From Malacoplasma iowae (GTDB lineage Bacteria; Bacillota_I; Bacilli_A; Mycoplasmatales; Mycoplasmoidaceae): a stretch of DNA of 64,000 nucleotides. Shown one piece after another: positions 2,314-53,751 of this stretch (positions are counted from its first letter, which is position 1; the number at the start of each line of letters is the position of its first letter). Both the position numbers and the translations under genes were made by a program. The stretch spans positions 496,001 to 560,000 of the forward strand of contig NZ_LR215023.1 of the NCBI RefSeq assembly GCF_900660615.1. The letters run 5' to 3'. The notes under the pieces were generated by a model. That model did no database searches and was not told the DNA's origin. It saw only the letters and a list, made by a program, of their open reading frames with translations.

Positions 2314-2590
2314 TTCAACTCATATAATTTATTTAATTTTTTACATGTAGTATTAATTTATAAAATACTACAGGTTTTTATTTGTAGATATAACAAACTT
2401 AAAAACAAATTAATGTATATTTATTTTAAAAGAATATAATTTAAATATAGAAGTTTGCTTTAAAAAATACATAATAATTTAAAAAATAAAGGAATTAAAA
2501 TTAATTTTTTAGAAAATTGGTGTATTAAAGTTTTAAGTGCTTTAACTAATGAAAACAAATTTTTATAAATAAAAAATATAGTACTGTTTG
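2314..2590. other. Intergenic region before the surface-protein cluster
   Basis: No coding region could be supported. It holds the lplA terminator at 2346-2376 and then A+T-rich sequence with no open frame of useful length. The promoter of the first paralogue starts at 2591. Confidence 0.6.
2346..2379 (+). terminator. Terminator after lplA
   Basis: Perfect 9-bp inverted repeat TGTAGTATT (2346-2354) and AATACTACA (2364-2372) with a 9-base loop, followed by GGTTTTTATTTG. Confidence 0.75.
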
Positions 2591-2623
2591 TTGAACTTTA
2601 CAAAAAAAAAAAAAAAATAAAAT
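2591..2623 (+). promoter_or_regulatory. Promoter of paralogue 1 with a 16-A tract, candidate phase-variable switch
   Basis: A TTGAAC box (2591-2596) and a TAAAAT box (2618-2623) are separated by 21 bases, of which 2602-2617 are 16 consecutive A residues. Known promoter spacing prefers about 17, so loss or gain of A residues would change spacing. By alignment with the upstream regions of the sister genes, TGTTGAACTT could instead be the -10 region, which would place the A tract at the transcript start. Either way, a slippage-prone homopolymer lies in the core promoter region. Poly-A spacers of this kind control the vlp genes of M. hyorhinis; whether this one does so here is inference. Confidence 0.55.
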
Positions 2624-2654: not shown

Positions 2655-4406
2655 ATGAAAAATAAATTTAAATTATTCATTGGAATATCTATTGGTGTGG
2701 CTTTGTGTGCAGCTACATCTTTTCCTTTAACAATGACTGTTAAAGATTATAATTATCCAACTAATGTGCCAAATAAACCTGGCATTCCAAGTACTCCAAT
2801 TCAACCAGGAAATAAATTTGAAGCTCCTGTATTGAAAGACAACATCACTTTTTCTGGTAGTATTAATCAATTAATAAAAACTGATGGTCGATCAGATGAT
2901 GTTAATAACAATTTAAATGCTATTTTTAATAATAATAAAAAAGCTATAATTAAAAATTATGACAAAGTAAATCAAACAGATTTTCAATCTCTAAAATTTA
3001 CAAGTGAAATTTTAAATTGAAACAATTGAGGTGATCAAACATTTGATCAATGAAAACAACAAGAACAACAAATAGAAGAAGTTGTATATAGTGATGAACA
3101 AAATATTGTTTTTCAATCAAAAGATCAATTAAAAAATTATTTAGAAACTAATATAACAACTATTTTAAAAGATAAACCGGAAGCCAAGTTAGCTGCTGCT
3201 GACTTTGGAGTTAATGATGCTGGTGATATTTTAATCCCTATTACAACAACATCAACACCAGCAACTGCTAGAATGTATTCTGCTTTTTCAAATCCAGAAT
3301 CTACAACAACAAGTGATAAACTTATTCTTAAAATATCACCTAACAAAATAACTTTTACTCCCCAAATTAAAATTAGTGGTACATATGGAGATAATCATAC
3401 CCAAATAGAAAGTAAAGATGTTTCATTTGAATGCAAAATAACAAATGTGGAAATTAAACCTATTACTTTTAAAGGAGATGCTGCTAATAAAAAAGAGGTA
3501 ACTTTAAAAGATAAGGGCATAAAGGACAATACAATTGAGTTATATGATGTAATCAAAGATGAAAATGTTTATAAAGCATTGGGTTGATTAGATGAAAATT
3601 CAAATCTTGGAGAACACCTTGATGGCTCTGATATGGATATAAGCTTATTGAATGAAGAAATTATCTATAATGATTTAGGATTAAATAAAGAAACAGATGA
3701 ATTGTTAGGAATAAAATTACAATTTATAAATGGAAATGAATCTAGAAAAGTAGATCATGAAAAATATAATAGGGAATATAAAATAATCATTGAAAGCATT
3801 GATAAAACTACTACAGACGACATTAATTTAAAAATAAACAATTATGAAATAACATCTTCAAGTAATCAAGAAGCAAGACAAAACGCTCCATTACAAGTGC
3901 TTGTTCCTAATGCATATTTATTAGATACAACACTTGAAGAAAATAAATTCATGTATATTAGTGGTAGTTTTTTTGGAAATAAATCATTTGAAATGGGATT
4001 TAAAACAACAAATAGTGATAATGCCACTACCTTAATTGACAACAACTTAAAAAATCAAAAGATTTATAAAAATTTTATGAAAAGAATAATTGAAGCAGCA
4101 AATGGTAAAAATATAAAATTATTTAATGGGGTAACTTTTAAATATAAAAACACTACGTGAAACTCATCAATGGTTGCAACATATGGTAATGTTATAAATT
4201 TAGATGTTACTTTGAAAAAAGGATTTGCTTTTAAAAATAATTTTACATTGAATTCATCAGATAAAACATATAGATACAATACAACTAAAAAAAGTCTTAC
4301 TACCATATCTTTTGGAACAGATTGTGAAACAGATGTTAATAAAGGTGCAATTTGAAAAAACTTTAATAAAACAGTAGATCAATTTGCAAGTGGGTTAACT
4401 GAATAG
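2655..4406 (+). CDS. Tandem surface-protein family, paralogue 1 (P35/MpPF1-like)
   Basis: 583-aa exported protein, first of five tandem paralogues. A basic N-terminus and hydrophobic stretch end at VALC (Cys18), where all five paralogues keep a Cys. A proline-rich segment (about residues 37-54) is unique to this copy. Conserved blocks follow in order: FSGSINQLIKTDGR, a Trp-rich block (ILNWNNWG), KIxFTPQIKISGTYG, DMDISLLNEE, LQVLVPNAYLLDT, and a C-terminal KTYRYNT/FGTD block. TGA codons read as Trp. A weak AAGG precedes the ATG at 2655. The arrangement of tandem paralogous surface proteins recalls the P35 family of Malacoplasma penetrans, but no search could be run and the signal peptides differ from P35. 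Function unknown; immune variation or adhesion is a guess. Confidence 0.75.
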
Positions 4407-4447
4407 ATTTTTTAATACTAAATTATTAAGCTATATTAAAATAATTT

Positions 4448-4476
4448 ACAAAACACTTAGTGTTTTGTATTTTTAT
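4448..4476 (+). terminator. Terminator after paralogue 1
   Basis: Perfect 9-bp stem ACAAAACAC (4448-4456) / GTGTTTTGT (4460-4468) with a 3-base loop, followed by ATTTTTATTTTT. Confidence 0.8.
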
Positions 4477-4732
4477 TTTTTATATTAATCAAACTTTGTA
4501 TGTGATTTTATATATCACAAAAAGGTAAAATAATATAATTTTTTTTGTAAAAAAATTTATAAATTTTTAAAAAATAATATAAAAATTTTAATAGGTTTAA
4601 ACCTTTATATGGTCGTGTATAATAATATAATTAACTTGAGCAATATATCATATAATTATGTTGTTAAATATTCTACAAATATAGCAATCTATTGTGATTA
4701 TTGTTTTGATGAATTTGGGGGAGATTTAAAAT

Positions 4733-4760
4733 TTTAATCATTAAATAAATAATGATTAAA
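4733..4760. repeat. Perfect 11-bp inverted repeat upstream of paralogue 2
   Basis: TTTAATCATTA (4733-4743) and TAATGATTAAA (4750-4760) with a 6-base spacer. No long T run follows, so it is a poor terminator. It could be an operator, a transcript hairpin or a chance A+T palindrome. Confidence 0.5.
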
Positions 4761-4848
4761 GTTTTGAACTATGGTTTAAATAGGTGTTTTTATGCATTCG
4801 ATTTTTGTAAAAACTTATATGTTAAAAAAGATTTTTTCAGTTTTGGTA

Positions 4849-6525
4849 ATGAAGTATAAAAAGGTGAAATTTAGTTATAAGTTAACTAATTTGTTGTCTT
4901 GTAGTGTTTCATTATGTTCTATGACATCTTTACCATTATCTGTAATTTTTGATATTGCAGGATTTGTTTTTCCAATTTTAAAAAGCAATATATCTTTTTC
5001 AGGTAATATTAGTGTAGTTCTTAAAGGTGATGGAAGAGCTAATGATGTCAACAATAATTTAAATAATATTTTTAATTCAAATAAAAGGGAAATGTTGGAA
5101 AATCCAGAAAGTGTAAGAGAAAGTGATTTAAAATCATTAAAATTTGACAGCAAGATATTAAATTGAAATGATTGAGGAACAGACACTTATGAACAATGAT
5201 CAAAAAATTCTGAGCCAACTGAGATAAATTATGATCAGTCAACAATAATTAATTTTCAATCAAAAAACCAATTAAAAGTTTATTTAGAAAATAATTTAAA
5301 AACTATTTTAGGAGACAAAGTAACTAATCCGCAATTAGCAAATGCTGAATTTGCAGTTAATGGTCTTGGAGAGTTACTAATACCGATTACTGCAGAAAAT
5401 ATTCCAACTACAAAACTAAATTTATTTTCTACAAAAAATGAAAACAAAGTAGTTCTTAAAATTCCTTCAGAAAAAATTTCTTTTACACCTCCAATTGAAA
5501 TTAGTGGTACTTTTGGACCTAATGGTACATCAATTAAATCTAAAAGCATTTCTTTTGTATTTGATACAATTAATGAAAAACAAGAAATTATTGTTTTTGC
5601 TAATGATGCAACATCTAAAAAAGATATAACCCTAGAAGACAAGGGAATTAGTGGAAACAAGATTAATTTATGGGAATATATAAAAGATGAAGATCTTTAT
5701 AAAAAACTAGGGTGAACTAAAGAAGGTGTATCTCTAGACAAACATATTGATGGTACAAGAATGGATATTAATATGTTGAATAAAGAGGTTATTTATAAAG
5801 ATCTTGGTATAGATGAAGCAACAAATGAGTTAACAACAATTAAAATAGAATTTATTAATGGTAATGAATCTAGAAATCCAGAAAACAACAATTATAATGG
5901 TGAATACAAAATAATAATTCAAAGTGTTGATAAACTTAAAAATAATGAATCAGTTGGTTCAAGAACTAAAAGATATGAAGTTGTATCTTCAATAAATGAC
6001 AAAGGAAATACTACACCATTACAAGTTAATGTTCCAAATGCATATTTATTAGATACAGATTTAGATGGTGGCAAATATATGTATATTACTAAAGAATTTA
6101 TGGGTAATAAATCTTTTGAAATGGGATTTAAAAGCGTTAGTGCTCAACCATTTGTTTTGATGTATAGAAATTTAGTTAATGGAACAATTCTTAATAAGTT
6201 TTTAGATACTATTAAAGAATCTGCAAAAACAAATAATTTTAAAATTTCTAATGGATTAGCTTTCACTATTGATAAAGTTGAAGTAAATCTTAATATGGAA
6301 AAAAACAATAACATAATATGATTAAATACACATCTTAGAAAAGGTTATAAATTTAAAAATCAATTTAGTTTAGAGTCTCAAACAAGAGCATGACCATATA
6401 AATACAACACAGATGGAAAAACAAATAAGATAAAATTTGGAGTAGACATTTCTTGACAACAAGGAGAAGCAGTTATTTGAGGAAATTATGATAAAACAAT
6501 AACTGATATAATAAATGGATATTAA
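4849..6525 (+). CDS. Tandem surface-protein family, paralogue 2 (P35/MpPF1-like)
   Basis: 558 aa from the ATG at 4849. This start is chosen because the protein then aligns with the N-termini of paralogues 3-5 and because the region just before it resembles their promoter. The other in-frame ATG (4792) would add 19 residues and is preceded by TAGGTG. The signal region ends in VSLC (Cys23), with a second Cys at 18. All family blocks are present: FSGNISVVLKGDGR, ILNWNDWG, KISFTPPIEISGTFG, DMDINMLNKE in a variant form, YNGEYKIII, LQVNVPNAYLLDT, and the C-terminal YKYNT block. The frame is continuous with TGA as Trp. Probably an exposed protein of unknown function; a strong terminator follows. Confidence 0.75.
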
Positions 6526-6553
6526 TTTTATCTAATTTTAAAAATCTAATATT

Positions 6554-6583
6554 ACCAACACCAAAAATGGTGTTGGTTTTTTA
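6554..6583 (+). terminator. Terminator after paralogue 2
   Basis: Perfect 9-bp stem ACCAACACC (6554-6562) / GGTGTTGGT (6569-6577), 6-base loop, then TTTTTT. Confidence 0.9.
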
Positions 6584-6666
6584 AAGTAATTTTATAATTA
6601 TTTTTTAATTAACTTTGACATTTAATTCTTTATTTATTTTGTAAATTATTTAATTTTTCTTATGGA

Positions 6667-6694
6667 TTGTATGGTCATTTTTTTGTGTTAAACT
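6667..6694 (+). promoter_or_regulatory. Putative promoter of paralogue 3 (family box)
   Basis: TTGTAT (6667-6672), a 16-base T-rich spacer, and TAAACT (6689-6694) inside an extended TGTTAAACTTA box. The same box TTTTTTGTGTTAAACTTA precedes paralogue 4, and variants precede paralogues 1 and 5, always about 60-70 bases before the start codon. Conservation between paralogues supports a functional role; the promoter reading is inference. Confidence 0.55.
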
Positions 6695-6748
6695 TAACAA
6701 AAAGAGAGAGATTTGTAGGTATATTTAAAATAGTGATTGGGGTTTGAA

Positions 6749-8425
6749 ATGAAGGTTGGTTTTAAGTCGTTACTTAATTTGTTATCAGGTAGTACATCAT
6801 TATGTATTGCAACGTCTTTACCATTATCAGTTATAAGTGATATGACAGGTTTATCATTTCCTATTTTAAAAGATAATGTTTCATTCACAGGAAATCTTAG
6901 TTTAATACTAAATGGGGATGGAAGACAAGAAGATGTAAATAACAATTTAAATAAAATTTTTAATTTTAATAAAAAAGGATTATTAAAAAATCCTAATAGT
7001 ATAAATGAATCAAACTTAGAAACTTTAAAGTTTAAAAGTGAAATATTAAATTGAAACGATTGAGGAAGTGAAACTTTTGATCAATGAGAACAAAATTCTT
7101 CACTACAAGAAATTGTTTATAATAAAACTGAAATAATTAATTTTGAATCAAAAAATCAATTAAAAAATTATTTTGAAAATAACTTATCAAAAATTTTGGA
7201 TAATATTCCAGGTGCTAAACTTGCAGATGCTGAATTTGGAATTGATGATTCAGGTCATTTACTAATTCCTGTTATTACATCAACAGTTGACACTAAGTTA
7301 AATTTATTTTCAAGTACAGAAAATATTGATAGTAAATTAATTCTTAAAATACCACCAGAAAAAATCTCTTTTAATCCACAGATTTCAATAAATGGTTCTT
7401 ATGGTCCTAATGATCAATTTCAAATTAAATCAAAAAATGTCTCATTAGTTTGTAAAATAACCAATCTTGATTATGTACCTATCACATTTACAAATGAGTC
7501 AATTGATAAAAAAGAAATAACACTTGATGATAAAGGTGTAACAAACAATAAAGTAAATTTATGAGAAAACATACAAGATGAAGATATTTATAAAAAATTA
7601 GGATGAGTTAAACAAACCACAACTTTTGATAACCATGTTGATGGTTCTGATATGGATATAAGTATGCTAGATGAAGATCTTATATATAATGATTTGGGAT
7701 TAAGCAAATCAACTGATGAACTATTAAGTGTAAGAATAGAATTTATAAATGGGGATGAATCTAGAAATTCAACAAGCGATAAATATAATGGTGAATACAA
7801 AATAATAATTGAAAGCATAGATAAAACAAGTAAAGATATTAATGGTTTAAAAATTAAAAACTATGAAGTTGTATCTTCTATAAATGAAAATAACAAAAGT
7901 GTTGTTCCTTTACAACTTAATGTACCTGATGCATATTTAATAGACACAAATCTAGATGGTGGAAAATTTATGTATATCACTAAAGAATTTTTTGATAACC
8001 AATCTTTTGAAATGGGTTTTAAAAATAATGTAGCAGTTGCTGAATTTGTTTTGATTTTAAGAAATTTAAGAAATGGTAATATTTTTAATAGTTTCATAAA
8101 TAAAATAAGAGAATCTGCTTTGAAAAAAGACATTAAACTTTCTAATGGTTTGGTATTTACAATTGGTGTAGTTGGGGTAAATCAAGCAATGGATCAAAAA
8201 TATTGAAACTATGTAACTTTAGATTCTTATCTAAAAAAAGGTTTTAAATTTAAAAAGCCTTTCAATTTAGAGACACAAAATAAAACTAAATCCTATAAAT
8301 ATAATACAGGTGGACATCCTGAAAATGTAAAATTTGGTATGGATCTTTCAACTAATAAAAATGAAGCTGCAATTTGAAGAAATTATGACAAAACCGCTGA
8401 TCAATTATCAAATGAGTTAGGTTAA
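6749..8425 (+). CDS. Tandem surface-protein family, paralogue 3 (P35/MpPF1-like)
   Basis: 558 aa. The ATG at 6749 follows TTGGGG and aligns with the start of paralogues 4 and 5; an in-frame TTG at 6737 would add only four residues. Signal region about residues 1-30 with TSLC at Cys19. Family blocks: FTGNLSLILNGDGR (about 48-61), NWNDWG (101-106), KISFNPQISINGSYG, DMDISMLDED, FINGDESR, YNGEYKIIIES (about 346), a VPDAYLIDT block (about 392), and a C-terminal block ending in Glu-Ala-Ala-Ile-Trp. The frame is open throughout with TGA as Trp. Surface location is inferred from the N-terminal signal; no C-terminal membrane segment is visible, so anchoring may rely on the N-terminus. Confidence 0.78.
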
Positions 8426-8497
8426 CAAATAAATAACAAAATCTTAATTAAAATTGTTTTATTACTTTTTTGTTAAATTAGTTTTTGAAATAAATAA

Positions 8498-8533
8498 AAA
8501 ATGTAGTATTTTTATGTACTGCATTTTTTTATC
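8498..8533 (+). terminator. Terminator after paralogue 3
   Basis: Stem AAATGTAGTA (8498-8507) / TACTGCATTT (8517-8526) with one G-U type pair, followed by a T run. Confidence 0.75.
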
Positions 8534-8729
8534 AAAATAAAACATTTGCTTTGTTTTATAAAAAAAATAATAAAACCAAAAATAGTGAATTTATTTTTTT
8601 TAATCAACATATTTTGCTGAAATAATTATTAATTTTTTATTAGTGATTACACGATTATTTTTTTGTGTTAAACTTATGAAAAAGAAACACTTTTGAAAGT
8701 TTATTCAAAGGTTATCTTGAGGTACGAAA
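8527..8729. other. Upstream region of paralogue 4
   Basis: The gap between paralogues 3 and 4 (8426-8729) contains the terminator at 8498-8533 and the promoter box at 8647-8674. No other coding or structured feature is seen. Confidence 0.5.
8647..8674 (+). promoter_or_regulatory. Putative promoter of paralogue 4 (family box)
   Basis: TTACAC (8647-8652), 16-base spacer, TAAACT (8669-8674) within TTTTTTGTGTTAAACTTA, identical to the box of paralogue 3 and at the same distance from the start codon. Confidence 0.55.
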
Positions 8730-10418
8730 ATGAAATTGGGTCTTAAATTTTTGCTTAATTTGTTATCAGGTAGTGTCTCATTGTGTATTGTAACTTCTTT
8801 GCCTTTATCAATAATAAGTGACATTAACAATTTTAAGTTTCCTATTTTGAATTCTCTTGCTTTAAAAGATGATATTTCTTTTTCGGGAAACATTAATCAA
8901 ATTCTTAAGGGAGACACAAGAGCTGATGATGTAAATGGCAATTTAAATAAAATTTTTAATACTAATAAAAAAGAATTATTAAAAAATCCAGAATATATAA
9001 GTGATTCAGATTTAGAAACATTAAAATTTAGTAGTCAAATATTAAATTGAAATAATTGGGGTACACAAACATTTAGTGAGTGAAAGGGAAATTCCAACCC
9101 AAAAGAAATTACTTATAACAAAAATGAAATTATTAATTTTGAATCAAAAAACCAATTAAAAAATTATTTAGAAAAAAACATTGTTACTATTGCAAATGAT
9201 GACCCTAATGCTAAATTAGCAGATGCAGAATTTAGTGTAGATGATTCTGGTGATTTATTAATCCCTATTACTACAACAAATGTTTCTAAAGCTAGATTGT
9301 ATAGTGATAATCAAAATGCTGAAGAAAATAAAGTTATTATAAAAATTACACCAGAAAAAATATCTTTTAATCCACAAATAGAAATAAGTGGTTCATATGG
9401 AAATAATAATCAATTCAAGGTTGAAACAAAAAGTGTTTCTTTAGAATGTAAGATCACTAATTTAGAAACAGTCCCTATTATGTTTAATAGTGATGTTAGT
9501 TATAAAAAAGAAATAACACTTGAGGATAAAGGTACTTCAGAAAACATAATTAATTCATGAACTAACATAAAGGATGAAGATATTTATAAAAAAATTGGAT
9601 GACTTAAAGATAATGTTTCTCTTGCTGATCATATTGATGGAACTGATATGGATATAAGTATGTTAAATGAAGAAGTCGTCTATAGTGATTTGGGAATAAG
9701 TAAATCAACAGATGAACTACTAAGTGTAAGAATAGAATTTGTTAATGGAGAAAATTCTAGAAATTCAACTAAAGATAATTACAATGGTGAATATAAAATA
9801 ATTTTAGAAAGCATTGATAAAACATCTAATAACAGTAATGGTTTAAACATTAAAAACTATGTGGTAGTTTCATCAATAAGTAATAATGGTAACAACACAA
9901 CTCCTTTACAAGTTAATGTTCCAGATGCTTATTTGTTGGATACGAATTTATCTGATGGTAAGGTTATGAATATTAGCAAAGAATTTTTTGGTGGAGAATC
10001 TTTTGAAATAGGTTTTAAAACAACTGCTTCTGCAGCGGATTTTGTATTATTACAAAGAAATTTATCCAATGGTACTATTTTTAATAGATTTATAGAAAAA
10101 ATTAAACAATCAGCAACCACAAAAGGACTAAAAATTTCTAATGGCGTTATACTTACGATTGGACCAGTTAATGTTGTAGAATCAATGGCACCATATAAAA
10201 ATGTCATTACTTTGAATGTGTCTTTAAAAAAAGGATATACATATAAAAAATCTTTTAATTTGCAATCTCAAACAAAAACAACTACATACAAATACAATAC
10301 AGCAGGTAATTTAAATTCAATTAGATTTGGAACTGATATTTCATCTACTCAAAATCAAGCTGCTATTTGAGGTAATGGTAGTAAGACTATAGAACAAATT
10401 GTTAATGGTACAAGATAA
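8730..10418 (+). CDS. Tandem surface-protein family, paralogue 4 (P35/MpPF1-like)
   Basis: 562 aa; ATG at 8730 preceded by GAGG. The signal region has VSLC at Cys19 and reads almost the same as paralogue 3. An extra short segment (NSLALKD) lies before the FSGNINQILKGDTR block. The later blocks ILNWNNWG, KISFNPQIEISGSYG, DMDISMLNEE, YNGEYKIILES, LQVNVPDAYLLDT and TYKYNT/RFGTDIS are all present. One of the conserved Trp codons is TGG here (NNWGTQ) while its sisters use TGA, so the Trp position is selected. Intact, with its own promoter box and terminator, so probably a separate transcription unit. Function unknown. Confidence 0.78.
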
Positions 10419-10511
10419 AACAAAAATAATAATTTACATTTTTTGTAATTTGTGAAATCTTTATAAAATAATCTAAATTTTTAGATACCTATAAAAAAAT
10501 AATATTTTTAT

Positions 10512-10544
10512 ATGTAACACTTTTATGTGTTACATATTTTTAAT
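10512..10544 (+). terminator. Terminator after paralogue 4
   Basis: Perfect 9-bp stem ATGTAACAC (10512-10520) / GTGTTACAT (10527-10535) followed by ATTTTTAA. Confidence 0.8.
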
Positions 10545-10736
10545 AACCATAAACATCATTGATTTTTAAACTAATTAAAAAATCTTATTTTTTACTTTTA
10601 AGTAAAATTAATAATTTTTTTTATTTGATAATCTATTATTAAATTTTTATTAATAATAGTATATTGTTTTTTTATGTTAAAATTACAGTCCAAAGACATT
10701 TGAAAATTATTTCAATTAATATAAGGGAGGTATAAA
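10545..10736. other. Upstream region of the disrupted paralogue 5
   Basis: The gap 10419-10736 holds the terminator at 10512-10544, the promoter box at 10673-10683 and the ribosome binding site GGGAGG at 10725-10730. No other feature is seen. Confidence 0.5.
10673..10683 (+). promoter_or_regulatory. Original promoter -10 region of paralogue 5, now cut off from its gene
   Basis: ATGTTAAAAT gives an extended -10 (TGTTAAAAT) at the same distance (about 55-60 bases) from the native start codon as in the sister genes. The IS copy at 10783-11944 separates it from the remaining open frame. Confidence 0.5.
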
Positions 10737-10782
10737 ATGAAATTTATTAAATTACTTAATTTCATATCAGGTGGTATTTCAT
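10737..10782. repeat. Left target duplication of IS copy 1 (46 bp)
   Basis: Identical to 11945-11990. It begins ATGAAAT and ends ATTTCAT, a 7-bp inverted repeat. It contains the start codon of paralogue 5. Confidence 0.95.
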
Positions 10783-10847
10783 GCTCGATTGACATGTGAA
10801 GTGCAACACTCAAAAAAGAGTGTGCACTTCATTTGTTTTGTTTGTAA
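10737..10847 (+). pseudogene. Truncated 5' remnant of paralogue 5
   Basis: The native start (ATG 10737 after GGGAGG) now encodes 15 residues of the signal region, then runs into IS sequence and stops at TAA 10845-10847, giving a 36-residue product with a hydrophobic leader. It keeps the original promoter and ribosome binding site, so this short peptide is what the native promoter would now express. Confidence 0.7.
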
Positions 10848-11944
10848 GTGTTCACTAATAAAAAGATAATGAATATTAGGAGTGCTTATGAAAACTTATA
10901 AACATTTAACAAAAGAAGAAAGATGCTTAATTTATTTTCTTTGAAATAAAGAAAAATATTCTATGAATAAGATTGCAAAAATCTTAAATAAAAACAAATC
11001 AACAATATCAAGAGAATTAAAAAGAAACACATCTTCAACAGGGATTTATTATTCATCAACTGCTCACAAAAAATACATTAGAAGAAAATCAAATTGTCAT
11101 ATGTTTTTTATGTTGAAGTACAAAAACTTCACAGATCTTTTTATTCAAAAATTTAATCCTAAATCTCATGGTGTAGAAGCTACAATTTTTTGAATAAAAG
11201 AAAACTATCCGTTAGTTAAAGTTCCAAGTGCTAGGCAAGTATTTAGATGAATCAATAGCAAGATTTGAAAGATACAAAGAAGAGATTGTTTAAGAAGAAA
11301 ATATGTTAAAGGAAAAAGAAGAAAAATAGGTATATTTTCTAAAATTGATGGAAAATACTGCATTCCTTATAGTCTAAGACCAGAAAAGATAAACAATAGA
11401 AAAGAATTTGGACATTGAGAAGCTGATCTAATAGTTAGTAAAAGGCAAAGTGGTTATTACCACTTATTGACATTAGTGGAAAGAAAAACAAGGTTGGCAA
11501 TTATTAGAAAAATAAAAGGGAAGAACGCAAGATCAATGATGGCTAAAATGTATACCATTATTCGAGATGAAAAACTCCCAATAAAAAGCATCACTGTTGA
11601 TAATGGGTTAGAGTTTCAAATGATGGGAATAACTGCAAAACAATTCAACTTTAAAGTTTATTATTGCCAACCTTATTCTTCATTCCAAAGAGGGTCCAAC
11701 GAGAACATAAATGGGATAGTTAGAAGATGATATAAAAAAGGAACTGACTTCAGTTTAGTAAGTGAAGATAAAATAAAAACTATTGAATGAAAAGTAAACA
11801 ACATCCCAAGAAAAATGTTTGGTTATAAAACAGCTTACCAAATGTATCAAGAAAATATTTAAAACAAAAAAACTCTCAACTTATATTTCAAAGTCGAGAG
11901 TTTAATGTAACATTGAAGTGTTGCACTTCACATGTCAGTTAGGG
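10783..11944 (+). mobile_element. IS30-family insertion sequence, copy 1 (IS1630-like)
   Basis: 1162 bp. The ends are imperfect inverted repeats of about 28 bp: left GCTCGATTGACATGTGAAGT..., right (complement) CCCTAACTGACATGTGAAGT..., sharing a 21-bp identical inner part. One transposase gene fills the element. Near the left end a hairpin (AAGTGC...GCACTT) followed by T-rich sequence could stop transcription from outside; near the right end AAACTCTC/GAGAGTTT (11870-11877/11896-11903) can end the transposase transcript. By eye it differs from copies 2-4 at two bases in the transposase gene. Inserted in paralogue 5 of the surface family, with a 46-bp target duplication. Confidence 0.95.
10888..11862 (+). 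CDS. IS30-family transposase (copy 1)
   Basis: 324 aa, the normal length for IS30 transposases. The N-terminus holds a helix-turn-helix (MNKIAKILNKNKSTISRELKR, which gives the IS30-type start). The catalytic triad is D180 (HWEAD), D238 (VDNG) and E272 (NENING), with 33 residues between the second Asp and the Glu, the DD(33)E pattern of IS30. ATG at 10888 follows TTAGGAGTGCTT. TGA is read as Trp at eight or so places. This copy has Ile in the TIEWK segment where copies 2-4 have Leu. Apparently intact and able to act. Confidence 0.95.
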
Positions 11945-11990
11945 ATGAAATTTATTAAATTACTTAATTTCATATCAGGTGGTATTTCAT
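11945..11990. repeat. Right target duplication of IS copy 1 (46 bp)
   Basis: Identical to 10737-10782; restores the start codon and first 15 codons of paralogue 5. Confidence 0.95.
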
Positions 11991-13603
11991 TATGTTTGGT
12001 AACATCATTGCCATTATCTTTGATGACTAATACTAAAAATTCTGAAACTTCTGTCTTGGGAATTTCAGATTTAGGTGTTCCTGTTTTAAAAGATAATATT
12101 TCATTTACAGGAAATATTAATATTTTATTAAATGGTGATGGAAGAGCTGATGTTGTAAATAAAAATTTGAATAAAATTATTAACTATAATAAAAATTCAA
12201 TGCTAAAAAATCTAGATGAAATAAGCGAGCTTGACTTAAATACATTATCTTTTGAATGTGAAATACTAAATTGAAACAATTGAGGAAATCAAACATTTGA
12301 TGAATGAAAAAATAATGGCGTTTCAAAAGAGGTTACATATAGTGAAAAAGATAAGATTATTTTCCAATCAAAAAATCAATTAAAAAATTTTTTGGAAAAT
12401 AATCTTATTAAACTATTAAATGATCCAAATGTTAAGTTAGCTGATGCAGAGTTTGGTATTAGCAATTTTGGAGATTTATTAATTCCGTTGGTTTCTAATT
12501 CAACAAACACAAGTAATGATAAAATAGTTCTTAAAATACCTTCTAAAAGTATTTTGTTTACTCCTAAAATTAAAATAACTGGTAGTTATGGAATAAAAAG
12601 AGAACGTCAAATTACATCAAAAAATATTTCTTTAGAATGCAATATATCTAATTTTGAATTGATACCTATTACATTTACAGAAAAAGCTAATAATAAAAAA
12701 GATATAATTCTTGATGAAAAACCAAATGATGCAAACAAAATTAACTTGTGAGAACAAATAAATGATAAAAATATTTTTGAAAAATTAAGTTGAATTAAAA
12801 AAGATGTTTTGAATAATGAAAACATAAATAATTCAAATATTAATTTAAGTATGTTTGATCTTAATGTTATTTATGATGATCTTGGATTAAACAAGGATAC
12901 TGATGAAATATTAAAAATAAGAATTCAGTTTATAAATGGTGAATCATCTAGAAGACCATCAAATAGTAATTATAATGGTTTATACAAAATATTAATTGAT
13001 ACTATTAAAAAAAATAACAATAATAATTCTGACTTAAAAATTAAAACATATGAAGTTGTTTCATCTATAAATCAGAATAAAAATACAAACCCATTACAAG
13101 TTAATGTTCCTGATGCTTTCTTGTTAGATACTAATTTGGGTGGTGGTAAATATATGTATATCACTAAAGAATTTTTTGGAAATCAATCTTTTGAAATGGG
13201 TTTTAAAACATATAGTGGTTGGCCTGCACAATTTGTCTTACTTCATAGAAACTTATCAAATGGTAGAATTATTAGTAGTTTCATTAAGAAAATTCATGAT
13301 TCAGCTAAAGCAAAAGGGATTCAAATTTCAAATGGTTTAATATTTATAATTGATCGTGTAAATGTGAATACTTTAATGGGAAAATATTCAAACAATGTAA
13401 GATTAAGAGTTTTACTTAGAAGAGGATTTAAGTTTAAAGATACATTTACATTAGAATTACAAGATAAGAGTGAAACATATAAATACAACACTAAAGGAAA
13501 TACAGGTAGTGTAATATTTGGAATTGATATTTCACCTAAACAAAACGAAGCAGCAATTTGAGGTAATTATTCTAAAACAATAAATGAAATTGTTTTAAAA
13601 TAA
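11945..13603 (+). CDS. Tandem surface-protein family, paralogue 5, start regenerated by IS target duplication
   Basis: 552 aa. The full coding region, with its original ATG (11945), survives because the 46-bp target duplication carries the first 15 codons. Native promoter and ribosome binding site are now 1.2 kb upstream on the far side of the IS, and the transposase terminator lies between. Only GTTAGGG abuts the ATG, too close for a normal ribosome binding site. An in-frame GTG at 11918 inside the IS end would add nine residues. The protein has signal region with ISLC (Cys17), FTGNINILLNGDGR, ILNWNNWG, YNGLYKILID, LQVNVPDAFLLDT and YKYNT blocks. Coding-competent, but expression is doubtful. 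Confidence 0.75.
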
Positions 13604-13897: not shown

Positions 13898-15718
13898 ATG
13901 AAGTTAAAGAATAAATTATTTGGTTTGCTTTCTGTTGGTGCTGCTGCATCAATTGGTAGTGTGTCTGTTACTATGTTAACTGATTCATTGAAACAAACAA
14001 AATTAAATAATGAAAAAGATAAATCCACCAATGATAATACATCTAAAGACAATGTAACTGAAAATGTTATTAATTCATCATTAAGTAAAACATCATCTGA
14101 CATTGTAAATGGTGCACCTGCTATCACTAATGATCTATTAGTAATAAAGGCAAATAATTTAAATAAAGTTCAAAACAAAAATGAATTTTTAAACAAAACA
14201 TTTAGCATTAGAACTTATGAACAATTTGTTAATAAAAAAAATTTAAGAAAAGATTTAATGTTTTATTTAAATTCTTTATGGAAATCTAATGGTAAAAAGT
14301 TTGCTATGACTTTTGTTACTGAACCAACTATTAGTGTTGCTAGTGATTACACTAGAAATGTGAATCTTAATGTAAAAATTAAATTAACTAATTTATTGCC
14401 TTCAACAACAAGTTTTAATTTTGATAATTATAGCCTTGAAATTGCTCCAAATAGTTTTGCATATTTTGAATTAAGAGTAGATAACTCTCCTTTTAAATTA
14501 ACTATTAATTCTTTTAATAATAGATTTTTCTTAGGTGTTAAATTTGATTCTATTATTGTGAATTGTTATGATAAGCAAAATAGAAAAATAAAATCATATA
14601 AATTAAAAGATTTCACTTTTACTCCTAAGAACTTCTCATACATATTTTTAAGTGAATTTTCGGGTTTAACAAATCAGTTAAACTATAGACAACTTTATGA
14701 TGATGATAATTTTGATCTTTATAGAAGTAAATTAACAAATAAAGAGATTGCCAATAATATATCTTTATATGCTTATGAACAACAAAATTTAATAATGGCA
14801 TCATTAAGAGCAGCAGATAAAGTTTTTGAAAGTATTTCAAGAAATCCTAAACTAGATGTTTTTTTAAATGATACAGGTTCAAGTATTTCGTATTTATTAA
14901 CACAATTAAAAATAATTCCAGCAGAATTACAAGGTCTTGTAACAGATTTAATTAGCAATGATAAAACCGTTATTCAAGTTATTCAAGATAATAGAAATAC
15001 AATTGAGAAATTTGCATTATCTATATTAGGAAATGACCCATTCTTTTCAGGTTTAATTACAAGTGTTTTAGATAAAATAAAACCAAATATGACTCCTGAA
15101 GAAAGAGAAGAATTCTTTTCATTATTAGAAGTAATTCCAGGAGATTTATCTTTTATTAAATCAATTCTTGGGAAAATATTTGATAGTGGAAAAACTTTTG
15201 ATATTATAGTTGATTTACTTTTAAATTCTTCAGATGAAATAAAGGATTTAATTAAAGGTGTTCCTTTTGTTTCAGAAATATTAGATTTTTTAAAAAATAC
15301 TTTTATTAAATTTAATGGCAACCCAGAAGTTCTTTCAGTTTTTGCTCAAGATAAAGAATCAATTATAAAATTATTAAAAACATTTTTATCAAGTAGTGGT
15401 ATGGCATTACCTCAAACATTCTGATTCTACTTTGATCAACTATTCACTAACAATTCAAATTTTAATGTTGATAAACTTAAATATTTATTTCAAACTACAT
15501 TTGTTGGATTTACAAGATATTTTTTAACTTCAATTACAACATCTGGCAATTTTGTTAAAAATGTTGAATATAATTATGAAAAAAACACAGTTAGTTTTAA
15601 ATATGAATTTGTTTGAACTTTAACTAAAGACTATTTGTGAAGTATTCTACCATTAAAGAACATTTTACCAAGTTATATTGGTATTCAAGGTTTCCCTTTT
15701 AAAATACCAACTAAATAA
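13898..15718 (+). pseudogene. Large exported protein, N-terminal part, interrupted by in-frame TAA
   Basis: The ATG at 13898 after AAGGGG opens a 606-residue frame that ends at TAA 15716-15718; the same frame continues without another stop to 16459 (854 codons in all). The N-terminus is a signal or anchor (KLKNKLFGLLSVGAAASIGS) with no lipobox Cys, then a Ser/Asn/Lys-rich linker, a beta-rich region, and helical segments around residues 350-500. No recognised domain. It differs in sequence from the five preceding paralogues, though the upstream region has a similar T-run plus TAAAAT box (13847-13852). I read this as one gene broken by a recent nonsense mutation; a sequencing error or two adjacent genes are the alternatives. 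Confidence 0.65.
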
Positions 15719-16459
15719 GTAACAGATGTTTTATTTGACTATATTAGATTTACAAAGAATGATAGAGTTGTGTTCACATATGAAGCTATAAATCAACCTT
15801 TATGAGCTAAACCAAAACTTGTTGATGGTATGTATTATTTTGGTTATACAATTCCACACAAATTAAAAGTGTGATTAGATTGACCAGGTGGATATAATTC
15901 TATTGCAGGACAATTCCATTGATTTATTGGACAATGAAATGCAGCAAGTGATATCACATATTATGCTTTATCACAGCAACACGAAGTATTGCAAACAATG
16001 TCTTTTTATGACAAAAATAAAGTACTTGGTGATTCTCAATATTATGGTGATGATGTTTACATGGATAAACTCCAATTTAAATGAAACCCAATTACAAATG
16101 ATTTAAAATGAGCTACACGATCTAGCTTAGCTCGTGAAACTTTAAGAAGATATGATGTTTATACAGCAGATCTTACAAATAGACACCAATATATATGATC
16201 AACAAGCTTAAAAATAGCTGAAAATAAATTAGATGATTTGGTTAATAAATATGTTTGGGTTAATGATAATGTTAAAAATGACCCAAGACTTCAACCAATT
16301 GTTTATTTACATCCTATTGTGGATTTAAGATTAAGATATTTATCAACTCAAATTCTAAGTGTTTTTGTTTTTGAGGCTGTGGTAATGTTCCCATATGATG
16401 TTATGAATGTTGATACTGGTGCTACAGGAAATGTTTTCAAAATTTCCTTCACATTATAA
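15719..16459 (+). pseudogene. Large exported protein, C-terminal part after the in-frame TAA
   Basis: 246 codons in the same frame as the upstream part, with TGA used as Trp at many positions (for example KVWLDWPGG and HWFIGQW), which indicates a coding history. No start codon with a ribosome binding site lies just after the TAA; the first usable ATG in frame is well inside (about 15828). The end is TAA at 16457-16459. Aromatic-rich and without a clear membrane anchor. Without readthrough or reinitiation this part is not made. Confidence 0.6.
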
Positions 16460-17281: not shown

Positions 17282-18443
17282 GCTCGATTGACATGTGAAG
17301 TGCAACACTCAAAAAAGAGTGTGCACTTCATTTGTTTTGTTTGTAAGTGTTCACTAATAAAAAGATAATGAATATTAGGAGTGCTTATGAAAACTTATAA
17401 ACATTTAACAAAAGAAGAAAGATGCTTAATTTATTTTCTTTGAAATAAAGAAAAATATTCTATGAATAAGATTGCAAAAATCTTAAATAAAAACAAATCA
17501 ACAATATCAAGAGAATTAAAAAGAAACACATCTTCAACAGGGATTTATTATTCATCAACTGCTCACAAAAAATACATTAGAAGAAAATCAAATTGTCATA
17601 TGTTTTTTATGTTGAAGTACAAAAACTTCACAGATCTTTTTATTCAAAAATTTAATCCTAAATCTCATGGTGTAGAAGCTACAATTTTTTGAATAAAAGA
17701 AAACTATCCGTTAGTTAAAGTTCCAAGTGCTAGGCAAGTATTTAGATGAATCAATAGCAAGATTTGAAAGATACAAAGAAGAGATTGTTTAAGAAGAAAA
17801 TATGTTAAAGGAAAAAGAAGAAAAATAGGTATATTTTCTAAAATTGATGGAAAATACTGCATTCCTTATAGTCTAAGACCAGAAAAGATAAACAATAGAA
17901 AAGAATTTGGACATTGAGAAGCTGATCTAATAGTTAGTAAAAGGCAAAGTGGTTATTACCACTTATTGACATTAGTGGAAAGAAAAACAAGGTTGGCAAT
18001 TATTAGAAAAATAAAAGGGAAGAACGCTAGATCAATGATGGCTAAAATGTATACCATTATTCGAGATGAAAAACTCCCAATAAAAAGCATCACTGTTGAT
18101 AATGGGTTAGAGTTTCAAATGATGGGAATAACTGCAAAACAATTCAACTTTAAAGTTTATTATTGCCAACCTTATTCTTCATTCCAAAGAGGGTCCAACG
18201 AGAACATAAATGGGATAGTTAGAAGATGATATAAAAAAGGAACTGACTTCAGTTTAGTAAGTGAAGATAAAATAAAAACTCTTGAATGAAAAGTAAACAA
18301 CATCCCAAGAAAAATGTTTGGTTATAAAACAGCTTACCAAATGTATCAAGAAAATATTTAAAACAAAAAAACTCTCAACTTATATTTCAAAGTCGAGAGT
18401 TTAATGTAACATTGAAGTGTTGCACTTCACATGTCAGTTAGGG
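17282..18443 (+). mobile_element. IS30-family insertion sequence, copy 2
   Basis: 1162 bp, same ends and contents as copy 1. Inserted in a terminator hairpin, which is duplicated whole on both sides, so the upstream gene keeps a stem and the original T run stays on the right. Confidence 0.95.
17387..18361 (+). CDS. IS30-family transposase (copy 2)
   Basis: 324 aa with intact helix-turn-helix and DD(33)E triad (D180, D238, E272). Differs from copy 1 at one residue (Leu for Ile in the TLEWK segment). No internal true stop codon. Confidence 0.95.
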
Positions 18444-27434: not shown

Positions 27435-28596
27435 GCTCGATTGACATGTGAAGTGCAACACTCAAAAAAGAGTGTGCACTTCATTTGTTTTGTTTGTAAG
27501 TGTTCACTAATAAAAAGATAATGAATATTAGGAGTGCTTATGAAAACTTATAAACATTTAACAAAAGAAGAAAGATGCTTAATTTATTTTCTTTGAAATA
27601 AAGAAAAATATTCTATGAATAAGATTGCAAAAATCTTAAATAAAAACAAATCAACAATATCAAGAGAATTAAAAAGAAACACATCTTCAACAGGGATTTA
27701 TTATTCATCAACTGCTCACAAAAAATACATTAGAAGAAAATCAAATTGTCATATGTTTTTTATGTTGAAGTACAAAAACTTCACAGATCTTTTTATTCAA
27801 AAATTTAATCCTAAATCTCATGGTGTAGAAGCTACAATTTTTTGAATAAAAGAAAACTATCCGTTAGTTAAAGTTCCAAGTGCTAGGCAAGTATTTAGAT
27901 GAATCAATAGCAAGATTTGAAAGATACAAAGAAGAGATTGTTTAAGAAGAAAATATGTTAAAGGAAAAAGAAGAAAAATAGGTATATTTTCTAAAATTGA
28001 TGGAAAATACTGCATTCCTTATAGTCTAAGACCAGAAAAGATAAACAATAGAAAAGAATTTGGACATTGAGAAGCTGATCTAATAGTTAGTAAAAGGCAA
28101 AGTGGTTATTACCACTTATTGACATTAGTGGAAAGAAAAACAAGGTTGGCAATTATTAGAAAAATAAAAGGGAAGAACGCTAGATCAATGATGGCTAAAA
28201 TGTATACCATTATTCGAGATGAAAAACTCCCAATAAAAAGCATCACTGTTGATAATGGGTTAGAGTTTCAAATGATGGGAATAACTGCAAAACAATTCAA
28301 CTTTAAAGTTTATTATTGCCAACCTTATTCTTCATTCCAAAGAGGGTCCAACGAGAACATAAATGGGATAGTTAGAAGATGATATAAAAAAGGAACTGAC
28401 TTCAGTTTAGTAAGTGAAGATAAAATAAAAACTCTTGAATGAAAAGTAAACAACATCCCAAGAAAAATGTTTGGTTATAAAACAGCTTACCAAATGTATC
28501 AAGAAAATATTTAAAACAAAAAAACTCTCAACTTATATTTCAAAGTCGAGAGTTTAATGTAACATTGAAGTGTTGCACTTCACATGTCAGTTAGGG
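27435..28596 (+). mobile_element. IS30-family insertion sequence, copy 3
   Basis: 1162 bp with the same ends, transposase and internal hairpins as the other copies. Target is a hairpin in the decayed, apparently gene-free region, duplicated in full on both sides. Confidence 0.95.
27540..28514 (+). CDS. IS30-family transposase (copy 3)
   Basis: 324 aa, intact helix-turn-helix and DD(33)E triad (D180, D238, E272); by eye the same protein as copy 2. Confidence 0.95.
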
Positions 28597-52589: not shown

Positions 52590-53751
52590 GCTCGATTGAC
52601 ATGTGAAGTGCAACACTCAAAAAAGAGTGTGCACTTCATTTGTTTTGTTTGTAAGTGTTCACTAATAAAAAGATAATGAATATTAGGAGTGCTTATGAAA
52701 ACTTATAAACATTTAACAAAAGAAGAAAGATGCTTAATTTATTTTCTTTGAAATAAAGAAAAATATTCTATGAATAAGATTGCAAAAATCTTAAATAAAA
52801 ACAAATCAACAATATCAAGAGAATTAAAAAGAAACACATCTTCAACAGGGATTTATTATTCATCAACTGCTCACAAAAAATACATTAGAAGAAAATCAAA
52901 TTGTCATATGTTTTTTATGTTGAAGTACAAAAACTTCACAGATCTTTTTATTCAAAAATTTAATCCTAAATCTCATGGTGTAGAAGCTACAATTTTTTGA
53001 ATAAAAGAAAACTATCCGTTAGTTAAAGTTCCAAGTGCTAGGCAAGTATTTAGATGAATCAATAGCAAGATTTGAAAGATACAAAGAAGAGATTGTTTAA
53101 GAAGAAAATATGTTAAAGGAAAAAGAAGAAAAATAGGTATATTTTCTAAAATTGATGGAAAATACTGCATTCCTTATAGTCTAAGACCAGAAAAGATAAA
53201 CAATAGAAAAGAATTTGGACATTGAGAAGCTGATCTAATAGTTAGTAAAAGGCAAAGTGGTTATTACCACTTATTGACATTAGTGGAAAGAAAAACAAGG
53301 TTGGCAATTATTAGAAAAATAAAAGGGAAGAACGCTAGATCAATGATGGCTAAAATGTATACCATTATTCGAGATGAAAAACTCCCAATAAAAAGCATCA
53401 CTGTTGATAATGGGTTAGAGTTTCAAATGATGGGAATAACTGCAAAACAATTCAACTTTAAAGTTTATTATTGCCAACCTTATTCTTCATTCCAAAGAGG
53501 GTCCAACGAGAACATAAATGGGATAGTTAGAAGATGATATAAAAAAGGAACTGACTTCAGTTTAGTAAGTGAAGATAAAATAAAAACTCTTGAATGAAAA
53601 GTAAACAACATCCCAAGAAAAATGTTTGGTTATAAAACAGCTTACCAAATGTATCAAGAAAATATTTAAAACAAAAAAACTCTCAACTTATATTTCAAAG
53701 TCGAGAGTTTAATGTAACATTGAAGTGTTGCACTTCACATGTCAGTTAGGG
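52590..53751 (+). mobile_element. IS30-family insertion sequence, copy 4
   Basis: 1162 bp, same structure as the other copies. Inserted in the nagB terminator, which is kept as a hairpin on both sides. Confidence 0.95.
52695..53669 (+). CDS. IS30-family transposase (copy 4)
   Basis: 324 aa, intact helix-turn-helix and DD(33)E triad (D180, D238, E272); by eye identical in protein to copies 2 and 3. Confidence 0.95.

What the first reader, a model, noticed from the sequence alone, without database searches (positions are those of the whole stretch)
2591..2623. Sixteen-A homopolymer between -35 and -10 boxes of the first surface paralogue
TTGAAC and TAAAAT are 21 bp apart because of an A16 run. 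The sister promoters have only 4-6 A residues at the matching place and an intact TGTTAAACT box. Slippage in the run would change spacing and could switch expression, as known for vlp genes of M. hyorhinis. It is the longest homopolymer I noticed in the window.
Basis: partly seen in the sequence, partly recalled or inferred. Interest (0 to 1): 0.7.

Follow-up and report, generated by a model that had tools for sequence, protein, structure and literature searches.

The report
Poly-A length switch in mycoplasma promoter
A run of sixteen A's in the promoter of a mycoplasma surface-protein gene is one of 22 unusually long A/T runs in this genome, more than half of them just upstream of surface-protein genes, and it most likely works as a slippage-driven expression switch of a kind already known in other mycoplasmas.

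Summary
The A16 run is real (2602-2617), as are TTGAAC (2591-2596), TAAAAT (2618-2623) and the 21-bp gap. The whole genome (1.28 Mb, UGA=Trp; genus Malacoplasma, species perhaps M. iowae, inferred) has 42 A/T runs of 9 or more; 22 of them are 13-19 long and none 11-12: a distinct class, all intergenic. Twelve are T16-T19 runs 37-52 bp before the ATG of exported proteins or lipoproteins, ten of them preceded by ACTTGC. The A16 run sits at the same place, 37 bp before its ATG. Relatives carry the same design, and no MutS was found.

Promoter-spacer slippage is therefore the best reading, with two corrections. The likelier -35 is TTTACA (2597-2602), which overlaps the run: spacer 15 at A16 and 17 at A18, so lengthening, not shortening, should switch the gene on. 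And TGTTAAACT in the sisters looks more like a -10 than a -35.

Tract-length variation, transcription start and expression could not be tested. The protein is a remote relative of the M. penetrans P35 (MpPF1) family, which M. penetrans switches by invertible promoters; this species appears to use homopolymers. New member of a known kind.

The parts
2343..2375 (+). hairpin followed by T-rich stretch after lplA; likely terminator isolating gene 1 from upstream transcription
   Evidence: inverted repeat I18; folds at -8.3 kcal/mol, z -2.3; weak
2591..2596 (+).
   Evidence: aligned with TTAAAC of the sister boxes
2597..2602 (+). TTTACA, preferred -35 (5/6), last base supplied by the tract; 15 bp from TAAAAT
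   Evidence: best hexamer pair upstream of the gene, 10/12; ACTTTAC matches the ACTTGAC before the T-tracts of a related species in 6/7 positions
2602..2617 (+). A16 homopolymer, proposed length switch
2618..2623 (+). TAAAAT, proposed -10 (5/6)
2655..4406 (+). surface paralogue 1 (583 aa, UGA=Trp), exported protein remotely related to MpPF1/P35
   Evidence: ORF; 46-50% identical to the other four window paralogues; profile match to MpPF1 alignment, probability 98.8, E 1.1e-16
4447..4469 (+). terminator hairpin after gene 1: its own transcription unit
   Evidence: z -4.2
4849..6525 (+). paralogue 2 (start chosen by alignment), no long tract
6749..8425 (+). paralogue 3; promoter T7-GTG-TTAAACT upstream (ends about 6694)
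8730..10418 (+). paralogue 4; promoter T7-GTG-TTAAACT
11945..13603 (+). paralogue 5, cut off from its promoter by an IS30-type element

Best explanation
The A16 run is the variable spacer of the promoter of surface paralogue 1. Replication slippage in the run changes the distance between a -35 element at its 5' edge (most likely TTTACA, 2597-2602) and a -10 element at its 3' edge (TAAAAT, 2618-2623), so RNA polymerase with its main sigma factor initiates efficiently only at some lengths, and single cells switch this gene on or off independently of its neighbours. At A16 the spacer is 15 bp, predicted weak or off; A17-A19 (16-18 bp) should be on. It is one of a genome-wide set of such tracts. 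Shown: the run, its position, its membership of a distinct length class, the parallel T-tract promoters, no MutS match. Inferred: the promoter elements, slippage and switching.
For: Genome census: 22 A/T runs of 13-19, none of 11-12, against 20 of 9-10; none is inside a credible coding frame. Twelve are T16-T19 runs ending 37-52 bp before the ATG of lipoproteins or exported proteins; the A16 run ends 37 bp before its ATG. Ten of the twelve are preceded by ACTTGC, across unrelated coding sequences, which points to promoters rather than coding. In related genome G001, lipoprotein genes have ACTTGAC-T16/T18/T19-GATAAGGT and another exported protein has A12-G-TATAAT 31 bp before its ATG. A sugar-nucleotidyltransferase-like gene has T18 here and T15 in G009 at the same distance (52 and 51 bp). 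TTTACA-15-TAAAAT is the best pair in the region, 10/12. Gene 1 has its own terminator. No MutS match in the genome while 11 of 14 control genomes match. Precedent: spacer-length changes switch vlp, maa2 and vmm (PMC2268961).
Against: No strain or read data, so length variation is not shown. The hexamer pair is not significant by itself: 119 of 2000 dinucleotide shuffles of the 99 bp reach 10/12. The tract is A-type, while the tracts before surface genes here are nearly all T-type. A T-tract next to the vpma -10 of M. agalactiae was reported not to cause switching (PMC2268961). Assemblies can misreport homopolymer length. Several of the 22 tracts do not lie near a likely promoter.
Confidence: 0.66

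Rival explanations
1. The tract lies in the spacer, but the -35 is TTGAAC: spacer 21 at A16, optimum 17 at A12, so shortening turns the gene on.
For: TTGAAC is 4/6 and TAAAAT 5/6.
Against: TTTACA scores higher (5/6) and overlaps the tract as the -35-like elements of the T-tract promoters do. No tract of 11 or 12 exists in the genome, so an on-state at A12 would lie outside the range seen.
Confidence: 0.12
2. The tract is not in the spacer but in the first transcribed bases. The sisters' TGTTAAACT is an extended -10; in gene 1 it is TGTTGAACT and transcription starts next to the A run, which would act through stuttering initiation or the 5' leader.
For: In genes 3 and 4 a T7 run and a candidate -35 lie at ordinary spacing upstream of TAAACT, and the A5 of the sisters aligns with the A16.
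Against: In gene 1 the box is weakened to TGAACT and the T7 and -35-like sequences are missing; the A16 run sits where the spacer tracts of other genes sit (37 bp before ATG) and is followed at once by TAAAAT.
Confidence: 0.12
3. The run tunes promoter strength in a graded way through DNA shape (rheostat), as the T-tract of H. pylori sabA does, rather than switching on and off.
For: Poly-A/T tracts near -35 elements act so in H. pylori (PMC4081817).
Against: The sabA tract is upstream of the -35; here it abuts the proposed -10 directly. Not distinguishable by sequence.
Confidence: 0.06
4. A neutral or vestigial long run with no effect on expression, as reported for the vpma tract.
For: vpma precedent (PMC2268961).
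Against: The length gap and the clustering before surface genes would not be expected of neutral runs.
Confidence: 0.04

Closest known systems
vlp genes of Mycoplasma hyorhinis
   Same: A homopolymer of A in the promoter of each member of a surface-protein family; random insertions and deletions there go with on/off transcription (PMC10502178, PMC2268961).
   Different: Here only one of five array members has it; the protein is a remote relative of MpPF1/P35; no strong tandem repeats in the coding region; lipoprotein signal not canonical; variation not shown.
maa2 of Mycoplasma arthritidis and vmm of M. mycoides
   Same: Spacer length between -35 and -10 changes and switches transcription (PMC2268961).
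   Different: Single genes; vmm changes by dinucleotides (PMC10502178); sequences not compared here.
P35/Mpl (Pfam MpPF1) family of Mycoplasma penetrans
   Same: Same protein superfamily: window paralogues match an MpPF1 alignment; four MpPF1 genes of this genome carry T19 promoters.
   Different: M. penetrans is reported to switch these genes by promoter inversion (PMC2268961, citing Horino 2003). The presumed M. penetrans genome G002 has 53 MpPF1 matches and only 4 tracts of 11 or more, none in the gene clusters.
sabA T-tract of Helicobacter pylori
   Same: Promoter-proximal homopolymer that varies by slippage (PMC4081817).
   Different: Upstream of the -35 and graded; different phylum.
T-tract of the vpma promoter, Mycoplasma agalactiae
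   Same: Homopolymer immediately upstream of the -10.
   Different: Reported not to generate variation; that family switches by Xer1 recombination (PMC2268961).

Membership tests
Promoter-spacer homopolymer contingency locus (vlp type) | Long homopolymer in the promoter region of a surface-protein gene | tested here: met
   A16, 37 bp before the ATG of an exported protein
Promoter-spacer homopolymer contingency locus (vlp type) | Tract lies between -35 and -10 | tested here: inconclusive
   Good hexamers flank it (10/12) but 6% of shuffles do as well, and the transcription start is unknown
Promoter-spacer homopolymer contingency locus (vlp type) | Tract length varies between cells or strains | not testable with these tools
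   one genome per species held; no reads
Promoter-spacer homopolymer contingency locus (vlp type) | Expression follows tract length | not testable with these tools
   no expression data
vlp gene family proper | Tandem repeats in the 3' coding region (size variation) | tested here: not met
   only weak two-copy repeats in the paralogue genes
vlp gene family proper | Sequence homology to Vlp proteins | not tested
   no Vlp sequence was fetched
MpPF1 (PF07668), P35-like | Match over the Pfam curated cut-off | tested here: not met
   no Pfam match for the five window paralogues
MpPF1 (PF07668), P35-like | Remote homology to family members | tested here: met
   profile-profile probability 98.8, E 1.1e-16 over 307 columns
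MpPF1 (PF07668), P35-like | Lipobox with cysteine | tested here: inconclusive
   window paralogues have a conserved cysteine (LC-x-x-TS-x-PL) but with L at -1, unlike the TSC/TAC of the T-tract lipoproteins
P35/Mpl invertible promoters | Promoter inside an inverted repeat that can flip | tested here: not met
   only imperfect AT-rich inverted repeats in 2300-2700, none framing the promoter as a clear pair

The most novel reading that the evidence does not exclude
Within one genus, the same P35-related surface family has changed its switching device: invertible promoters in M. penetrans, slippage-prone homopolymer spacers (mostly T, one A) in this species and in a second relative, with the set of tract lengths acting as a readable record of which genes are on (in the MpPF1-type cassettes one gene at 16, the rest at 18-19).
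Probability: 0.5. Interest if true: 0.68.

Novelty: new member of a known kind. Interest (0 to 1): 0.5.

Why it matters
It places the A16 run in a genome-wide set of 22 homopolymer tracts, twelve of the others before surface genes in a common layout, and gives numerical predictions that existing sequencing reads could test. It also offers a comparison of two switching devices acting on the same protein family in one genus, which bears on how mycoplasmas with few regulators diversify their surface.

Tried and rejected
Search of genome contigs with the gene 1 protein found no relatives. Pattern of the gene 1 promoter in viral contigs: none. Pattern TTTACA-A-tract-TAWAAT in 395 genomes of the class: only this genome and two single hits elsewhere, so it is not a common coincidence; it also did not bring up a vlp-like array. 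Structure prediction of gene 1 was poor (mean pLDDT 53), so no fold search was run. The sigma-70 scan found as many promoter-like sites as shuffles do, so it is uninformative. Considered and dropped: invertible promoter (no clear inverted repeat pair); simple AT-richness (no runs of 11-12). The primary papers on vlp and on mpl promoter inversion are not held in the library; they are cited through later papers.

Full report
Observation. The window holds A16 at 2602-2617, with TTGAAC at 2591-2596 and TAAAAT at 2618-2623, 21 bp apart. It is the longest homopolymer of the 64 kb; the next are A10 and A9. The downstream gene (2655-4406, UGA read as Trp) is the first of five paralogues (2655-13603); the other four are 46-50% identical to it.

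Is it more than chance? A Markov simulation of the window gives a maximum of 16 or more in 16 of 200 runs, which would be unremarkable; but the real sequence has fewer long runs than that model expects. The genome census is clearer. G000 (1,278,574 bp, one contig) has 42 A/T runs of 9 or more and 22 of 11 or more; the 22 measure 13 (1), 14 (1), 16 (3), 17 (5), 18 (6) and 19 (6). There are none of 11 or 12. All lie outside credible coding frames. This is a separate class of tract, and the A16 run belongs to it.

Where the other tracts are. Read towards the gene, twelve are T16-T19 and end 37-52 bp before the ATG of lipoproteins or exported proteins. Ten of these are preceded by ACTTGC, and the MpPF1-type genes have GAG-TATACT behind the tract. 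The gene 1 tract ends 37 bp before its ATG, within the same range. Another tract (T18) lies 52 bp before a sugar-nucleotidyltransferase-like gene, and a homologous gene in G009 has T15 at 51 bp. An A14 tract before a small gene here corresponds to an A18 tract before its homologue in G009. In G001, three lipoprotein genes have ACTTGAC-T19/T18/T16-GATAAGGT, and another exported protein has A12-G-TATAAT 31 bp before its ATG, an A-type tract next to a perfect -10. The design is thus shared within the genus.

Which elements flank the A16 run? Among all hexamer pairs 15-19 bp apart in 2480-2650, the best is TTTACA (2597-2602) with TAAAAT, 10 of 12, spacer 15. By itself that is weak: 119 of 2000 dinucleotide shuffles of the 99 bp upstream do as well. 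But ACTTTAC-A16 matches ACTTGAC-Tn of G001 in 6 of 7 positions; about 0.7% of CAAAA sites in the window match that well (the comparison was chosen after seeing it). In most of these promoters the -35-like element runs into the tract. With TTTACA the spacer is n-1 (17 at A18); with TTGAAC it is n+5 (17 at A12). In the T-type cassettes with TTGCTT and TATACT it is n+1: 17 at T16 and 20 at T19. Of the seven such MpPF1-type cassettes here, five are T19, one T18 and one T16; in G001 they are 19, 18 and 16. If assembly lengths are right, one gene per set is at the best spacing. These are predictions, not measurements.

The sister promoters. Genes 3 and 4 have T7-GTG-TTAAACT with A5 behind it; gene 5 has T7-ATG-TTAAAAT and no A run. 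TTAAACT after TG is easier to read as an extended -10, with T7 in its spacer, than as a -35. In gene 1 this box is TGTTGAACT and the T7 is missing. Gene 1 may have shifted its promoter about 25-30 bp downstream, the A run expanding at the A5 position; this is inference.

Transcription unit. A hairpin terminator follows gene 1 (4447-4469) and a weaker one follows lplA (2343-2375), so gene 1 is probably transcribed alone, as an independently switched gene should be. The genome has no MutS match, while 11 of 14 control genomes do, consistent with frequent slippage.

The protein. The five paralogues have no Pfam match, but their alignment matches one of MpPF1 (PF07668) proteins from three genomes with probability 98.8 and E 1.1e-16. 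I take MpPF1 to be the P35/Mpl family of M. penetrans (own knowledge). G002, whose 1,358,633 bp contig is the size I remember for M. penetrans HF-2, has 53 MpPF1 matches and only four tracts of 11 or more, none in the MpPF1 clusters; this genome has eight matches, four with T19 promoters; G001 has four, three with T-tracts. M. penetrans is reported to switch this family by promoter inversion (PMC2268961). So the same family appears to be switched by different devices in one genus. The five-gene array is absent from the closest relative found (uncultured Mycoplasma MAG, 88% identity in the neighbouring dehydrogenase): there lplA is followed directly by the P116-like gene.

Known systems. Spacer-length changes switch vlp, maa2 and vmm in other mycoplasmas, while a T-tract next to the vpma -10 was reported not to (PMC2268961). 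In H. pylori, tracts near the -35 act as rheostats (PMC4081817). The finding is a new member of the known kind, with the promoter elements probably reassigned. What is missing is direct evidence of length variation, start site and expression; none could be obtained here. The species name (perhaps M. iowae) is inferred from genus, genome size and exclusion, and was not tested.

Noticed in passing
window 10790-11937, 17289-18436, 27442-28589, 52597-53744: Four copies (99.8-100% identical in the ORF) of an IS30-family element (NCBIfam transpos_IS30). Flanks show long target duplications that contain inverted repeats or terminator hairpins (about 45 bp at the first copy, about 25 bp at the second), reminiscent of IS1630 of M. 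fermentans (from memory).
   Followed up: partly
window 10738-11990: The first IS copy separates paralogue 5 from its promoter, but the target duplication carries the ATG and coding start, so the gene is intact without its own promoter.
   Followed up: partly
window 13898-16459: P116-family lipid acquisition surface protein (NF045696, E 5.5e-113) that ends at 606 aa against an 889-position model; the following ORF 15770-16459 may be the rest of the gene, possibly a split gene.
   Followed up: no
L088 7523-9240: In the related MAG the P116-like gene looks frameshifted and interrupted by stops.
   Followed up: no
L067, L068, L069 (G000:C1 195.8-206.2 kb): A second group of exported proteins without a credible family match also has T17-T19 tracts followed by GA(G/A)TAG; two of the three are preceded by GACTTGC.
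   Followed up: no
L144 (G402): TTTAC-A16-C-TATAAT upstream of a PTS-like gene in a distant Mollicute: the same layout before a metabolic gene.
   Followed up: no
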